This document shows, one piece after another, positions 658 to 24,967 of a DNA stretch of 24,967 bases. Every line of letters begins with the position of its first letter. Positions within the stretch are counted from its first letter, which is position 1. This DNA comes from a virus, in the IMG/VR virus record IMGVR_UViG_3300035698_018091, positions 1 through 24,967 of that record, one strand, 5' to 3'. Below the pieces are notes generated by a model. The model worked only from the letters and a program-made list of their open reading frames with translations, was not told the origin of the DNA and did no database searches. The translations under genes and the position numbers were made by a program.

Positions 658-3513
658 ATGTTTATAAGTGTTTATTATGATGGTAAAAAGAATAAGATAT
701 ATCATAAGTTTGTTAATGAAGATGGTAAAATAAAAAGAACATATGAAAAAAATATATTTAAATATTATGTAAAAGATACTAGTGGAAAATCTGATAAAAC
801 AGATATTTTTGGTGTACCTGTTATTGAAAAAACCAGTACTAAAAGAGATGGGATGAAAGCATTAGTAGAATCTGGTGAATATTGTTGTGAAACAGATATT
901 GGACAAGATATATTATTTTTACAAAATACATATGGTGGTCAAAAATTAGAAATTGATATGAATGTTATTATGGTTGCTAATATTGATATTGAAATTGAAA
1001 GTGGTGATGAATTTCCTAAAGCAGAAGATGCTAAATATCCTATTAATTTAATAACAGTTAAATTTAGTAATGGTGATATTCATACTTTTGGTAATAGAGA
1101 ATATATTAAAAATGAAGATAGTAATGTTGATAATTATTATTGGATACCTGATGAAAAAAATTTATTGGAAAAATTTATTACCGTATTTCGTAAATATAAA
1201 GTAGATATTTTAACAGGTTGGTATATTAATGGATTTGATATTCCTTATATTATAAATAGAAGTAATATCTTAGGTATAGAAAAAACTTTATCACCATTAA
1301 ATAAATATGATAAAAATAAAAATGGTGTTTATAGTATTCCTGGTATTTCTATTTTAGATTATATAGAATTATATAAAAAATATAGAATGAAAGTTAGGGA
1401 AAGATATAGTCTTAATTTTATATCTAATATTGAGTTAGGTGAAAGTAAATTAGATTTAGATGGGCAAATTAATGATAGTTATAAATATAATTGGGATCAA
1501 TTTGTTGAGTATAATGTTCAGGATGTTTTATTGGTAGATAAACTAGAAAAGAAATTGAAATTTATAGAACTTGTAGTCGGATTTAGTTATCAAGCATTAG
1601 TTCCATTTGAAAAACCATTAAATCAAATGCCATTAATAACAGGATATATTCTTAATTATTTACATTGTAGAAATATGGTTATGCCACCTAGAAAAAATAA
1701 TATTAAAGAATCTTATCCTGGTGGTTATGTTTACGCTAAACCAGGATTACATGAAAATGTTATTACATATGATGTGGAATCAGAATATCCACATATGATT
1801 ATGAAATATAATATTAGTCCAGAAACTTTGGTTTTAAATCCAACTAATACTGAAGGTCTTATAAGAACACCGGCCTCTCCAAATTTTACTGAGATTAAAA
1901 AAGAGGGATATCATATAAAATCTGAAGTTAAACCTTTTGGTGGTATTTATTATGATGGTAGTAAACAAGGTGTTTTACCTGCTATTATAGAAAAAATATT
2001 TGCTGAACGTAAATATTTTAAAAATAAAAAAGCAGAAGCTAATGATAAAAATAATTTAGTAGATGCTACTTATTATGATGTTCAACAAAAGATTAGAAAG
2101 ATTCTTATTAATTGTTTTCATGAAAGTACTGATATTATAACAGTTAATGGTATTAAGAAGATTAAAGATGTCTGTGTTGGTGATATGGTATATTCAATAA
2201 ATAAAGAAACTAAAGATCTTGAAATAAAAATTGTAGAAAAAACATATGTATATGACTATGATGGTGATATGCATAGGATTAGAAATTCTAAAGTTGATAT
2301 ATGTGTTACACCAGAACATAAAATGTTAATAGAAAAAAATGATTGTATTAATAAAATAGAAGCTAAAGACTTTGTTTTAGAAGATCGTATTATTCCTATT
2401 CATAATAAAGATTGTGATGCTATATTTTTTGATTTTGATGAATATGAACAAGATGAACTATTAGGAATTACTATTAATGTTAATAATATTAAATTATTTA
2501 ATAAATCTATTGATATTATAATAAAAGCTGGATATATACCATGTTATATAATTTTGAATAGCAAATATTATATAACATGGGAAACTTCTAATATTAATAT
2601 TAGTAAAGATGATTGTTCAACTGAATATTTTAAAGGGAAAGTATATAATATAACTGTAGCAGATAAACATACTGTATGTGTTGGTTCTAATGGCAAGTTT
2701 ATGTGGACTGGACAATCGATGTATGGTGTCATGGGAAATAAGTATTTTCATTTTTATAATATATCTAATGCAACAGCTATTACTCTTGGTGGACAAGATC
2801 TTATTAGATTTTTATCTAAAACTACTTCAGATTATCTTATGCAAAAATATGATCTTAAAACAGATCCATTAGTTTTAATAGACACAGATTCTAATCATTT
2901 TAGTTTAAAAGAATTAATTGATAAACTTGGTGTTAAATTTAAAGATAATCAAGAACTTATTGATTGGATGAATAAATTTGACGCTAATTTAATGGTTGGT
3001 TTTTATCAAAAAATATTAGAAATATATGCTAAAAGATTTAATACTAAACAAAATATAAATTTTAAAAGAGAAAAGATATGTAAAAATGAATTGGTATTAG
3101 CTAAAAAGATGTATGTTTGTCAAGTTGTTGATAATGAAGGTGAGATATATTTAGAACCTAAAATATTAAATACAGGTATTGCTGTTGTACGTACATCAAC
3201 ACCTGTATTTTGTAGATCTAAAATATTAGATTTACAAAAAGAATTATTTGAATCTAAAGATCCATTACAAATTATAGAAAAAATGGTTAATATTAAAAAA
3301 GAATTTATGAAACAAGATATTGATAATATTGCAGCACCTAGTGGTATTAATAATTATGAAGAATATGAGGAAGCTACTGATGGTATTTATGGTCAAGGTT
3401 TTTTAAACTATAAAAAAGCTACTCCTATACATGTTAGAGCGGCGTTAAATTATAATCATACTATTAAAAATATGGGATTAGATTACAACCTATTACTAGT
3501 GGTACTAAATTAA
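658..3513 (+). CDS. Family B replicative DNA polymerase (gp43-like), intein-containing, frameshifted near 3' end
   Basis: Replicative polymerase with 3'-5' proofreading. Visible motifs are Exo I (D110, E112), Exo II (N191 to D194), Exo III (D289), polymerase motif A (DVESEYP, 372-378), motif B (KILIN / SMYG, split by an intein after residue 485) and motif C (IDTDS, 741-745, catalytic D742 and D744). An AAGGAG ribosome site precedes the ATG. The frame ends at 3513 with an unrelated tail (NLLLVVLN) shortly after GLDY, while the expected continuation, QPITSGTKLKF onward, lies in the -1 frame to 3728. As written, the product lacks about 80 residues of thumb and the C-terminal tail where T4-like polymerases bind the clamp. 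The break could be a real mutation, recoding, or a one-base sequence error. The family call is very secure. Confidence 0.95.
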   Translation: MFISVYYDGKKNKIYHKFVNEDGKIKRTYEKNIFKYYVKDTSGKSDKTDIFGVPVIEKTSTKRDGMKALVESGEYCCETDIGQDILFLQNTYGGQKLEIDMNVIMVANIDIEIESGDEFPKAEDAKYPINLITVKFSNGDIHTFGNREYIKNEDSNVDNYYWIPDEKNLLEKFITVFRKYKVDILTGWYINGFDIPYIINRSNILGIEKTLSPLNKYDKNKNGVYSIPGISILDYIELYKKYRMKVRERYSLNFISNIELGESKLDLDGQINDSYKYNWDQFVEYNVQDVLLVDKLEKKLKFIELVVGFSYQALVPFEKPLNQMPLITGYILNYLHCRNMVMPPRKNNIKESYPGGYVYAKPGLHENVITYDVESEYPHMIMKYNISPETLVLNPTNTEGLIRTPASPNFTEIKKEGYHIKSEVKPFGGIYYDGSKQGVLPAIIEKIFAERKYFKNKKAEANDKNNLVDATYYDVQQKIRKILINCFHESTDIITVNGIKKIKDVCVGDMVYSINKETKDLEIKIVEKTYVYDYDGDMHRIRNSKVDICVTPEHKMLIEKNDCINKIEAKDFVLEDRIIPIHNKDCDAIFFDFDEYEQDELLGITINVNNIKLFNKSIDIIIKAGYIPCYIILNSKYYITWETSNINISKDDCSTEYFKGKVYNITVADKHTVCVGSNGKFMWTGQSMYGVMGNKYFHFYNISNATAITLGGQDLIRFLSKTTSDYLMQKYDLKTDPLVLIDTDSNHFSLKELIDKLGVKFKDNQELIDWMNKFDANLMVGFYQKILEIYAKRFNTKQNINFKREKICKNELVLAKKMYVCQVVDNEGEIYLEPKILNTGIAVVRTSTPVFCRSKILDLQKELFESKDPLQIIEKMVNIKKEFMKQDIDNIAAPSGINNYEEYEEATDGIYGQGFLNYKKATPIHVRAALNYNHTIKNMGLDYNLLLVVLN
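2113..2715 (+). other. Mini-intein in polymerase motif B
   Basis: Residues 486-686 (201 aa) interrupt motif B exactly between KILIN and SMYGVMG. The insert starts with Cys486 and has block A (CFHESTDIITVNG), block B with the conserved T and H (VTPEHKM), blocks F/G (KVYNITVADKHTVCVGSNG) and an ending WTGQ before the extein Ser. The penultimate residue is Gly, not the classic His, as in a subset of phage inteins. A middle stretch (DELLGITINVNN) looks like a decayed LAGLIDADG half-motif, so the homing endonuclease is probably dead. Splicing would restore a normal Kx3NSxYG motif. Confidence 0.88.
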
Positions 3514-9150: not shown

Positions 9151-9797
9151 AAATAGCTGGAATAGATTATAGTGTTAATTGTCCAGGAGTAGTTGTTCTG
9201 GATTTAAATGAAAATTTAGATGTTGTATCTAAAGAATTTCTAAGTTTTACACAGAAAAAGAAAGATACTACAGATAATATATTGTATTATAAAAAGAAAG
9301 ATTTTAATAATGTATATCAACAATATATTTGGATTAGAGATAAAATAAAAAAAATTGTTAGTGGATGTTTATATATAGCCTTTGAAGATTACGCATATGC
9401 GGCTAAAGGTAAGGTTTTTAATATTGCCGAAACAACATCTGCTATGAAGATTTGGTTATTTGAACATGGAATTAAATTAAGATTTTATGATCCAAAGAGT
9501 ATTAAGATGTTTGCTACTAAAAATGGTAATGCTAATAAAGAATTAATGATAGAAACATACGAAAAACTTCCAATGGAAGATAGGTTTGATTTATCAAGTT
9601 TAAGTACTATTAAAACCAAAGAAGATATATGCGATGCTTATTGGTGTGTCAATTTATTATTATTAGAATTAAAATTAAGACGTGGATTAGTAGATTTAAA
9701 AGATTATGATGAAAAAACCATTCGAATATTTAATAGAATAACACATAGTAATCCAGAAAATATTCTGGTGCGTAATTTTATAGAAAGGAAGTATTAA
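9147..9797 (+). CDS. RuvC-like RNase H-fold endonuclease (putative Holliday-junction resolvase)
   Basis: At 216 residues it has the acidic layout of RuvC-family nucleases: D7 in the first strand (MKIAGIDYSVN), E80 in YIAFEDYAY, and the D160/D163 pair in KEDICDAYW near the C-terminus. RuvC-type enzymes cut branched DNA such as Holliday junctions. In this phage it would resolve recombination or packaging intermediates, because no T4 endonuclease VII-like gene is seen here. It overlaps the primase stop (ATGA) and its own stop overlaps the next start. Its last 39 residues are duplicated downstream in the mini-ORF at 9797-9982. Confidence 0.8.
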   Translation: MKIAGIDYSVNCPGVVVLDLNENLDVVSKEFLSFTQKKKDTTDNILYYKKKDFNNVYQQYIWIRDKIKKIVSGCLYIAFEDYAYAAKGKVFNIAETTSAMKIWLFEHGIKLRFYDPKSIKMFATKNGNANKELMIETYEKLPMEDRFDLSSLSTIKTKEDICDAYWCVNLLLLELKLRRGLVDLKDYDEKTIRIFNRITHSNPENILVRNFIERKY

Positions 9798-10047
9798 TGA
9801 ATTTATCAGATTTTATTGAAGATGATATTTTAATATATGATGATATTTTAGATTTTGATATATTAAGATGTGGATTAAAAGATTTGAAAGATTATGATGA
9901 AAAAATTATTCAAATATTTAATAAAGCAACAAAAAATTCAGAAAATTTTACGGTACGACCATTTTTAAAAAGGAAATATTAATGAATTTATCAGATTTTA
10001 TTGAAGATGATGATGTTTTTACGCATGACGATATTTTAGATTTTGAT
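9678..10047 (+). repeat. Diverged tandem duplication of a gene junction (about 188 bp unit)
   Basis: Copy 1 (9678-9865) covers the 3' end of the RuvC-like gene and the first 69 or so bases after the 9797 ATG. Copy 2 (9866-10047) repeats the same arrangement and continues into the exonuclease. Copies share AGA-CGT/TGT-GGATTA at the start, GATTATGATGAAAAA, AGGAAxTATTAATGAATT around the start codon, and GATATTTTAGATTTTGAT at the end. They differ by substitutions and one missing codon, so the event is not recent. Confidence 0.85.
9797..9982 (+). CDS. 61-residue chimeric mini-protein made by tandem duplication
   Basis: Its first 21 residues (MNLSDFIEDDILIYDDILDFD) nearly match the start of the following exonuclease; residues 24-61 (GLKDLKDYDEKIIQIFNKAT and on to FLKRKY) match the C-terminus of the preceding RuvC-like protein. 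It is exactly what a tandem duplication of the junction between the two genes would leave. It keeps an AGGAAG ribosome site, an ATG overlapping the upstream stop (TAATG) and an intact frame, so it is probably translated. It carries no catalytic residues of either parent. It may be a by-product with no function, or a small partner mimic of either parent; neither can be told from sequence. Confidence 0.7.
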   Translation: MNLSDFIEDDILIYDDILDFDILRCGLKDLKDYDEKIIQIFNKATKNSENFTVRPFLKRKY

Positions 10048-22959: not shown

Positions 22960-23493
22960 ATGACAGCTAAAATAATAAAAGCGGTTGAATTTGCTATAGA
23001 AGCACATTATAACCAACCATATAATTACGGTCCTTATAAATATCATTTAGAATATGTTAGTGCTGTTTTATTAGATGCTGGAGTGAAGCCACACGAAAAT
23101 AATAAGGATGAATGTATTATAATTGCTGCTTATTTACATGATATATTAGAAGATACTAATACTAATTATAGTGATATTAAAAAATGTTTTGGTTATTATA
23201 TAGCTGATATTGTATATGCAGTAACGGATGAACTAGGTAAAAATAGAAAAGAAAGACATGAAAAAACATATCCTAAGATTAAGAAGTTATGTGTTAATAG
23301 AATAATTAAAATAGCTGATAGAATAGCAAATATGGAAACTGGTGGTAAGAATGATATGTATTTAGAAGAATATAAAGATTTTAAAGATGCTATTAAACCT
23401 AATGATATTAATGATATAATAGAACAAAAATTATGGGATAGATTAGATAATATTGTTATTGTTGAATTAATGAAAAGAATAAATCACTTTTAA
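22960..23493 (+). CDS. HD-domain hydrolase, Mesh1/SpoT-like (putative (p)ppGpp hydrolase)
   Basis: The 177-residue single-domain protein has the ordered metal and catalytic residues of the RelA/SpoT-type hydrolase family: H29 (YKYHLEYV), H60-D61 and E64-D65 (YLHDILEDT), and D120 with N124 (IKIADRIANME). Spacing is close to the small alarmone hydrolase Mesh1 (H35, H61, D62, E65, D66, D122 as I recall). VTDELGKNRKERHEKTYPKI is also typical of the family. No synthetase domain is attached. It would break down alarmones such as ppGpp, or a related nucleotide, in the cytosol. It has its own promoter and AAAGGAG site. Confidence 0.82.
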   Translation: MTAKIIKAVEFAIEAHYNQPYNYGPYKYHLEYVSAVLLDAGVKPHENNKDECIIIAAYLHDILEDTNTNYSDIKKCFGYYIADIVYAVTDELGKNRKERHEKTYPKIKKLCVNRIIKIADRIANMETGGKNDMYLEEYKDFKDAIKPNDINDIIEQKLWDRLDNIVIVELMKRINHF

Positions 23494-23506
23494 TAATTAA
23501 ATATTT
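23478..23506 (+). repeat. 29-bp direct repeat, copy 1 (3' end of HD gene)
   Basis: AATAAATCACTTTTAATAAT and the next 9 bases occur identically at 24175-24203, 697 bases downstream. Here they encode the last HD-protein residues and the spacer before the first repeat gene. They mark the left edge of a tandemly duplicated unit. Confidence 0.9.
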
Positions 23507-23529
23507 AAAATAAGGAAATTAAAATTAAA

Positions 23530-24210
23530 ATGATAATAACAAAAGAATTATTAGAAAAATATGATGCTTGTAAAAGTGGTATTAAATTTTTTAAAAATAA
23601 CTTTAAACAACTTGATACCAATAAAATAAAAATTACAGGTGATTATAAACATTTTTATGATTGGATTCAAAAGTTACCCGAAATAAAAGTTGATGATAAA
23701 GGTAATATTATACAGAAAAAATATCCAAGTGGTTATATTATTAAATATAAATATGATGATAGAGGTAATATAATATGGGAAAAATCTTCAAGTGGTCATA
23801 TTTATGATTACAAATATGATAAAAATAATAATATGATATGGGAAAAAGATTTTGATGGTTATATTCTTGAATGGAAATATGATAAAAATAATAATATAAT
23901 ATTGTATAAAAATTGTAATGGTGATATTGAAGAATATAAATATGATCAAAACAATAATAAGATCTGGGAAAAAGATCCATGGAGTAATATTGAAGAGTAC
24001 AAATTTGATAAAAATAATAATATGATATGGCAAAAATATTGGAATGGTCATATTCAAGAATATAAATATGATAAAAATAATAATCTAATTTGGGAAAAAG
24101 ATGTAGCTGGTTATATTAGTGAATGGAAATATAAAAAAGATTCAAAAGATAGACTAGTTGAAATTATAGAAAATAATAAATCACTTTTAATAATTAAATA
24201 TTTGAATTAA
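23530..24210 (+). CDS. YD/RHS-like 21-residue repeat protein, copy 1
   Basis: The 226 residues comprise an N-terminal domain (1-54, LLEKYDACKSGIKFF... LPEIK), seven consecutive 21-residue repeats (55-201) of pattern DKNNNxIWEKDxxGxIxEYKY, and a C-terminal tail (202-226). The pattern resembles YD/RHS repeats (YDxxGNxIxxxxxxG), which form beta-strand spirals, but there is no RHS core, signal peptide, protease site or toxin domain. The next gene is a paralogue with the same N-terminal domain. The last residues (KSLLIIKYLN) come from a 29-bp repeat that, in another frame, ends the HD gene, so the tail seems to be a duplication product. Function unknown; binding or scaffold roles are plausible. 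Confidence 0.75.
   Translation: MIITKELLEKYDACKSGIKFFKNNFKQLDTNKIKITGDYKHFYDWIQKLPEIKVDDKGNIIQKKYPSGYIIKYKYDDRGNIIWEKSSSGHIYDYKYDKNNNMIWEKDFDGYILEWKYDKNNNIILYKNCNGDIEEYKYDQNNNKIWEKDPWSNIEEYKFDKNNNMIWQKYWNGHIQEYKYDKNNNLIWEKDVAGYISEWKYKKDSKDRLVEIIENNKSLLIIKYLN
23692..24132 (+). repeat. Seven tandem 63-bp coding repeats
   Basis: Seven units of 63 bases encode the 21-residue repeats of the first repeat protein. They have diverged at many positions but keep frame and length exactly. Confidence 0.85.
24175..24203 (+). repeat. 29-bp direct repeat, copy 2 (3' end of first repeat gene)
   Basis: Identical to 23478-23506 but read in a different frame, where it encodes the C-terminal tail of the first repeat protein. 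It precedes the second repeat gene by about the same distance as copy 1 precedes the first. Confidence 0.9.
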
Positions 24211-24221
24211 GGATATATAAA

Positions 24222-24967
24222 ATGTTAATTACAAAAGAATTATTAGAAAAACATAATGCTTGTAAAAGTGGTATTACATTTTTTGAAAATAACTTTAACA
24301 AATTAGATACTAATAAAATAAAAGTTACAGGTGATTATAAGGGTTTTTATAATTATATTCAAACTTTACCTGAAATTAAAGAAGATAATAAAGGTAATAT
24401 TATTTGGCAAAAAAATTCAAGTGGTAATATTTATGAATATAAATATGATAAAAATAATAATCTAATATGGGAAAAAGATCCAGATGGTGATATTTGTAAA
24501 TACGAATATGATAATAAAAATAATATTATTCTAGAACGAGATTGGAATGGTGATATTTGTAAATACGAATATGATAATAAAAATAATCTAATTTGGGGAA
24601 AAAATTATAATGGTGATATTATTGAATGTAAATATAACGAAAATAATAATATAATATGGAAAAAAGATTCTGATGGTGATATTTATGAATACAAATATGA
24701 TAATAAAAATAATAGGATATGGTATAAAGATTTTGATGGCTATATTACTGAATACAAATATGATGAAAATCATAATAAAATATGGGAAAAAGATTATAAT
24801 GATAATATTTCTGAATTTAAATATGATAAAAATAATAATTTGATATGGGAAAAAGATTCTAATGGTAATATATGGGAATGGAAATATGATGAACATAGTA
24901 ATGTGATATGGAATAAAGATTCTGATGGTAATATATGGGAATGGAAATATGATCGAAATCATAATAG
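24222..24967 (+). CDS. YD/RHS-like 21-residue repeat protein, copy 2 (3' end beyond window)
   Basis: An ATG at 24222, after AAGGA, opens a frame that stays open to the window edge (248 codons). Residues 1-54 (MLITKELLEKHNACKSGITF and on to LPEIK) are a close paralogue of the first protein's N-terminal domain. Nine full 21-residue repeats follow (55-243), then the start of a tenth. Some repeats are nearly identical at DNA level: 24484-24524 and 24547-24587 share 41 identical bases at a 63-base offset, showing recent repeat expansion. Whether a different C-terminal domain follows cannot be seen. Confidence 0.8.
   Translation, partial: MLITKELLEKHNACKSGITFFENNFNKLDTNKIKVTGDYKGFYNYIQTLPEIKEDNKGNIIWQKNSSGNIYEYKYDKNNNLIWEKDPDGDICKYEYDNKNNIILERDWNGDICKYEYDNKNNLIWGKNYNGDIIECKYNENNNIIWKKDSDGDIYEYKYDNKNNRIWYKDFDGYITEYKYDENHNKIWEKDYNDNISEFKYDKNNNLIWEKDSNGNIWEWKYDEHSNVIWNKDSDGNIWEWKYDRNHN
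24384..24967 (+). repeat. Tandem 63-bp coding repeats (nine or more units)
   Basis: At least nine 63-base units; the pairs beginning about 24484/24547 and 24851/24914 are nearly identical, so recent unit duplication has occurred. The array continues past the window. Confidence 0.88.

What the first reader, a model, noticed from the sequence alone, without database searches (positions are those of the whole stretch)
23530..24967. Tandem paralogues of a 21-residue YD/RHS-like repeat protein with expanding 63-bp repeats
Two neighbouring genes share a 54-residue N-terminal domain (ACKSGIxFF...LPEIK) and differ in repeat number (seven versus at least nine). Some repeat units are almost identical, so the arrays are changing now by unit gain or loss while staying in frame. 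No toxin, secretion signal or RHS core is seen. This may be an unrecognised, fast-evolving phage protein family for binding or decoy functions.
Basis: partly seen in the sequence, partly recalled or inferred. Interest (0 to 1): 0.7.

Follow-up and report, generated by a model that had tools for sequence, protein, structure and literature searches.

The report
Tandem phage genes with expandable repeats
This phage carries side-by-side copies of a small gene made of a short head piece plus a string of 21-residue RHS/YD repeats; related phages put the same repeat string on another head and the same head on other repeat strings, so it looks like a fast-changing phage surface kit whose job is still unknown.

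Summary
YD1 (23530-24210) has a 54-residue cap, seven perfect 21-residue units and a degenerate eighth. YD2 (24222 to the contig end) has the same cap and at least nine units. "Almost identical" units is overstated: the best pair is 56/63 bases.

The repeats are genuine RHS/YD repeats (PF05593, TIGR01643; model matches Rhs shells, Z 14.9), but seven units are too few to close a shell. No toxin, RHS core or secretion signal is seen.

New findings:
(1) The 42 bp ending at 23513, upstream of YD1, match the 3' end of YD1 (39/42) and encode the same C-terminus and stop out of frame with the preceding HD gene. They are probably the scar of a lost third copy. An unrelated phage (L027) shows the same scar.
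(2) The cap is a remote relative of an ITKExL..ACxxGxxWF cap that elsewhere precedes SSG, TTG, AGxGI or Ala-rich repeats. YD arrays also occur behind DUF7666, which elsewhere precedes NTG repeats. Caps and tails are thus exchanged.
(3) Tandem copies go with YD tails (7 of 14 contigs, against 0 of 49 for NTG tails).

Most likely it is an accessory, non-virion, evolvable binding or decoy protein. That function is inferred, not shown. New variant of a known kind.

The parts
23472..23513 (+). Probable 3' remnant of a lost upstream copy (YD0): its last 13 codons and stop (EKNKSLLIIKYLK*), overlapping the 3' end of the HD-domain gene in another frame
   Evidence: 39/42 identical to 24169-24210; next best 42-mer match in the window is 27/42; reading frame shown; 57/65 over the longer segment
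22960..23493 (+). HD-domain phosphohydrolase gene whose last ~10 codons lie in the shared segment
   Evidence: PF13328 4.4e-8, phrog_990 1.2e-28; homology to other phage HD proteins ends before the shared tail
23530..23691 (+). YD1 N-terminal cap, 54 aa (MIITKELLEKYDACKSGIKFF...)
   Evidence: 76% identical to the YD2 cap; profile of caps from other repeat proteins finds it, E 1.4e-5, above all decoys
23692..24132 (+). YD1 array: seven 21-residue YD/RHS units
   Evidence: AF2 pLDDT above 90 over most of it, Rhs-shell match
24139..24207 (+). YD1 degenerate terminal unit DSKDRLVEIIENNKSLLIIKY plus LN
   Evidence: BLOSUM62 score 26 against the terminal unit of the L007 protein; 0 of 709 out-of-frame and 0 of 4684 in-frame 21-mers reach it
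24222..24383 (+). YD2 N-terminal cap, 54 aa
24384..24967 (+). YD2 array: nine full units and the start of a tenth, cut by the contig end

Best explanation
Shown: the locus is part of a tandem family of small phage genes, each a short N-terminal cap followed by an in-frame array of 21-residue YD/RHS hairpins and, in YD1, a degenerate closing unit. Strongly suggested: copies are gained and lost, leaving a scar of a third copy upstream. In relatives, units are gained, lost or converted in frame, and caps and repeat tails occur in different combinations. Inferred: the array folds as an open, curved piece of Rhs-type beta-sheet in which some side chains (positions 2, 6, 9, 12, 13, 15, 17) vary and the rest hold the fold. 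The protein acts inside the infected cell, not in the virion, as a binding or decoy scaffold against a variable host factor, and the cap is the constant part that docks or caps the array. Copy and unit turnover would then be the way the surface is diversified.
For: RHS family and fold. Scar of a lost copy; the same anatomy in L027. Exchange of caps and tails. Tandem clusters. Unit turnover in relatives. Non-structural context: in the window, among replication and nucleotide genes; in L007, in a + strand cassette of small genes while the terminase and capsid genes are on the - strand. No secretion signal-like hydrophobic start. Unit variability is concentrated at positions 17, 12, 6, 9 and 2, while positions 5, 7 and 16 are invariant.
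Against: No host target, expression or fitness data. The cap is poorly modelled (pLDDT 66). Cap homology to the other caps rests on about 25 N-terminal residues (E 1e-5 to 7e-3). No PADLOC hit. No close relatives of this phage were found, so its own repeat-number variation is untested. The arrays in the window are not homogenised.
Confidence: 0.42

Rival explanations
1. Virion-associated fibre, adhesin or decoration protein: the YD array is an external binding surface, as in Rhs and teneurin proteins.
For: All solved YD-array relatives are secreted or cell-surface proteins or toxins; SSG/collagen-like tails behind related caps resemble tail-fibre families.
Against: Gene neighbours in the window are replication and nucleotide metabolism genes; in L007 the gene is on the strand opposite the late structural genes; small size; multiple tandem copies per phage in the DUF7666 relatives.
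Confidence: 0.15
2. Immunity or antitoxin-like proteins: tandem paralogues act like a polyimmunity locus, neutralising variable toxins, possibly RHS/YD toxins by mimicking shell strands.
For: A related cap precedes weakly Imm5-like proteins (L089, L090; E about 1e-3, below the Pfam cut-off); tandem paralogous immunity genes are a described pattern (PMC3482391).
Against: No toxin gene nearby in the window; YD arrays are not among the immunity folds seen in the passages of that paper that were read; the Imm5 matches are sub-threshold and lie outside the cap.
Confidence: 0.12
3. Low-constraint, largely passive repeat genes kept by slippage-like duplication, with little specific function.
For: AT-rich genome (24% GC); another 188-bp tandem duplication at a gene junction at 9674-10047; one copy in L030 looks frameshifted.
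Against: Cap dN 0.14 against dS 0.31; invariant core positions in 16 units; constant 21-aa period without indels in nearly all copies; recurrence in unrelated phages with different caps.
Confidence: 0.2
4. A truncated orphan of a full RHS toxin gene.
For: Genuine RHS repeats.
Against: YD1 and the L007 protein are complete ORFs with a cap conserved from Met1 and a terminal unit; neither has an RHS core or toxin.
Confidence: 0.05

Closest known systems
RHS/YD repeat proteins (PF05593, TIGR01643; Rhs cores such as 8uxt, 8qja, 8qjd; teneurins)
   Same: Repeat sequence, 21-residue period, hairpin strand pattern and predicted fold (Foldseek 7.6e-13, Z up to 14.9).
   Different: Seven to nine or so units against a whole shell of about 1000 residues or more; no RHS core, toxin or secretion part; phage gene; tandem paralogues with their own cap.
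DUF7666 (PF24703) phage proteins with YD or NTG-type repeats
   Same: Small phage proteins with a short N-terminal domain plus a repeat array of variable length; the YD-tailed ones are often tandem paralogues too (20 DUF7666 matches in one 102-kb contig).
   Different: The N-terminal domain is not detectably related to the window cap; no DUF7666 match in the window.
Cap ITKExL..ACxxGxxWF proteins with SSG, TTG or AGxGI repeats (e.g. Edwardsiella phage GF-2 ORF-55, Komagataeibacter phage phiKX1)
   Same: N-terminal 25 residues, starting at the start codon, recognised by profile; followed by an in-frame array that varies in length.
   Different: Different repeat type and a conserved C-terminal segment (VGENGIEA...) in the SSG-tailed ones; no tandem copies noticed.
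Klebsiella phage K64-1 gp352
   Same: ACKSGIDFF cap at the N-terminus (38% identity to YD1 over 48 residues; profile E 3.8e-4).
   Different: No recognised YD array.

Membership tests
RHS/YD repeat (PF05593 / TIGR01643) | Matches the curated repeat model above its cut-off | tested here: met
   PF05593 41.5 and 64.2 bits (cut-off 22); TIGR01643 45.2 and 61.5 bits (cut-off 15.8)
RHS/YD repeat (PF05593 / TIGR01643) | Folds as Rhs-type hairpin beta-sheet | tested here: met
   AF2 repeats at pLDDT above 90; Foldseek 7.6e-13 to Tse15, VIA-align Z 14.9 to an Rhs core; a predicted model, not a solved structure
RHS polymorphic toxin / RHS element core protein | RHS core (NF041261 cut-off 2000 bits), closed shell, C-terminal toxin, secretion part | tested here: not met
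   NF041261 30-39 bits only; no core or toxin model in YD1; 226 aa; the C-terminus of YD2 is unseen
DUF7666 (PF24703) | DUF7666 N-terminal domain | tested here: not met
   No Pfam match in YD1 or YD2; A8 profile finds nothing in the window but 20 places in G009
ITKExL..ACxxGxxWF cap proteins (unnamed) | N-terminal cap profile built without the window proteins | tested here: met
   E 1.4e-5 (YD1) and 1.9e-4 (YD2); best decoy 0.27; covers about 25 residues only
ITKExL..ACxxGxxWF cap proteins (unnamed) | Second half of the cap (DD/DWAxWL motif) | tested here: inconclusive
   Not aligned by the profile in the window proteins; alignment gapped there
Imm5-like immunity proteins | Imm5 or Imm5_like domain | tested here: not met
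   No match in YD1 or YD2; only sub-threshold in L089 and L090
Known anti-phage defence proteins (PADLOC) | Match to a PADLOC model | tested here: not met

The most novel reading that the evidence does not exclude
Phages share a modular diversification kit: a few small N-terminal caps are exchanged among unrelated repeat scaffolds (YD hairpin sheets, NTG/SSG/AGxGI solenoid-like arrays), and the YD versions are amplified in tandem so that unit and copy turnover produce many variants of an intracellular binding surface aimed at host factors or defences.
Probability: 0.25. Interest if true: 0.8.

Novelty: new variant of a known kind. Interest (0 to 1): 0.5.

Why it matters
YD/RHS repeats are known from secreted toxins and teneurins. 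Here they appear as short stand-alone arrays in phages, in tandem gene families, on a cap shared with other repeat proteins. If the arrays bind host factors, this is a general way for phages to vary a surface by recombination of repeats, and the families (cap without a Pfam entry, DUF7666) become targets for direct tests. Even if the function proves dull, the cap-and-tail exchange explains many scattered 'collagen-like' or 'RHS' hypothetical phage proteins.

Tried and rejected
Single-protein scan of viral contigs with YD1: no confirmed relative. K64-1-based cap alignment: none in viral contigs. Bacterial genome scan with the cap+YD alignment returned six loci matched over the repeat part (from query residue 28 on), none over the start of the cap. 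HD-gene neighbours in other phages (L008-L014) carry no YD gene. Simple tandem duplication with the breakpoint inside the HD gene, so that YD1's C-terminus would be HD DNA read out of frame, was considered for the 42-bp repeat. It is less likely, because the YD1 C-terminus is itself a degenerate YD unit similar to the L007 terminal unit (shared 15-mer: 0 of 1418 out-of-frame matches as good) and L027 shows the same scar. The Streptococcus phage YS34-rum match is a full RHS toxin, only repeat-related. The AF2 cap model was too weak for a fold search. The Erwinia phage Pavtok match (E 6) is taken as chance. Literature searches found no account of such phage proteins.

Full report
What is there. 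The window is a whole 24,967-bp virus record, probably a genome fragment, with a T4-like replication set: family B DNA polymerase, RecA-like protein, DnaB-type helicase, clamp loader, ribonucleotide reductase, RNA ligase; its RecA-like protein is closest to UvsX of Stenotrophomonas phages at 46%. At its right end are an HD-domain gene (22960-23493) and two paralogous genes. YD1 (23530-24210) has a 54-residue cap, seven 21-residue units and a degenerate eighth; YD2 (24222 to the end) has the same cap and nine units plus the start of a tenth. The units match PF05593 and TIGR01643 above the curated cut-offs.

How similar the units are. Unit identity is 73-75% within and 74% between the genes. The best pair shares 56 of 63 bases and the longest exact stretch is about 41 bp. 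Between the two caps dS is 0.31 and dN 0.14. Relatives do show change. Two contigs 99.3-99.8% identical around the gene (L072, L073) differ by one 54-bp in-frame insertion in a cap+FSG-repeat gene. Two YD genes (L112, L113) are identical except for seven changes within 21 bp, as a conversion tract would leave. In L027 some units match at 61-62 of 63 bases.

A lost copy. The 65 bp spanning the end of the HD gene and the spacer before YD1 match the end of YD1 and the spacer before YD2 at 57/65. Over the last 42 bp the match is 39/42, against 27/42 for the next best place in the window. In the YD frame the HD-side copy still reads EKNKSLLIIKYLK-stop. The conserved part of other phage HD proteins ends before this segment. 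The YD1 C-terminus is itself a degenerate YD unit like the terminal unit of the L007 protein, at a score that no out-of-frame stretch of the window reaches. The simplest reading is a third copy upstream that was deleted, leaving its 3' end fused under the HD gene. In L027, a different phage with a different cap, the stretch before the first of two tandem YD genes is again the end of a YD gene (ACTGAACAATAA, TEQ-stop, the C-terminus of both copies) plus the same spacer.

Relatives and modular build. The only clear relative of the whole protein is a single-copy gene in L007 (43-58% identity over cap and repeats, seven units plus a terminal unit). It lies in a + strand cassette of small genes between late genes on the other strand. 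The repeats, however, occur behind a different cap, DUF7666, in several phages, and DUF7666 elsewhere precedes NTG/AASG repeats. The window's own cap is a remote relative of an ITKExL..ACxxGxxWF cap: a profile built from 18 caps of non-YD proteins, most with repeat tails, ranks YD1, YD2, K64-1 gp352 and L007 first among 6,624 real and decoy sequences (E 1.4e-5, 1.9e-4, 3.8e-4, 7e-3; best decoy 0.27). Those caps mostly precede SSG, TTG, AGxGI or Ala-rich tails. So at least two caps and several repeat tails occur in different combinations.

Tandem copies go with YD tails. Of DUF7666 contigs, 7 of 14 with YD tails have two or more copies within one fetched locus, against 0 of 49 with NTG-type tails (Fisher p 6e-6). 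The contigs were reduced by hand to one count each, and shared ancestry of the phages is not corrected for. One 102-kb contig gives 20 DUF7666 matches, including some fragments.

Structure. AlphaFold2 with three sequences gives pLDDT above 90 over most of the array and a poor cap. The array matches Rhs cores (Foldseek 7.6e-13, VIA-align Z up to 14.9). With about 14-16 strands it can only be an open curved sheet, since solved shells have many more repeats (inference). Across the 16 units, positions 5, 7 and 16 are invariant and positions 17, 12, 6, 9 and 2 vary most. A cap-only model is low in confidence (pLDDT 66, three short helices).

Function. Not shown. Context, lack of a signal sequence, multiplicity and variability favour an accessory intracellular binding or decoy protein; rivals are a virion protein, an immunity-type protein, or weakly constrained repeat genes. 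There is no PADLOC match, and no paper describing such proteins was found in the library held, which lacks most subscription journals.

Limits. YD2 is truncated by the contig end, and other contigs break inside such arrays too, so repeat counts from short-read assemblies need care. The host is unknown. No near relatives of the window phage were available.

Noticed in passing
658-3513: The family B DNA polymerase gene carries an in-frame intein (Pfam Intein_splicing 1.6e-6, below the curated score, residues 497-671).
   Followed up: partly
9674-10047: 188-bp tandem duplication across the junction of the RuvC-like gene and the 5'-3' exonuclease gene, creating a chimeric 61-aa ORF (9797-9982): a second case in this genome of duplication at a gene boundary.
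   Followed up: no
23746, 23935, 24061, 24438: TATAAATA, the T4 late promoter consensus (from memory), recurs inside the arrays because it spells Tyr-Lys-Tyr; probably codon usage, not promoters.
   Followed up: no
L089 and L090, from 1501: The ITKExL..ACxxGxxWF cap in front of weakly Imm5-like, Ala-rich proteins in viral contigs (E about 1e-3, below the cut-off).
   Followed up: partly
L030 3699-4432: One DUF7666+YD copy in a five-gene tandem run appears split by a frameshift.
   Followed up: no
L007 1098-3440: The terminase-like gene region of this T4-like contig appears to contain an intein-like insert with an HNH-like ORF (by eye).
   Followed up: no
L046 3338-3949: In Pseudomonas phage PspYZU05 a DUF7666 gene is followed by a gene made of SGxW repeats: yet another repeat protein beside a DUF7666 gene.
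   Followed up: no
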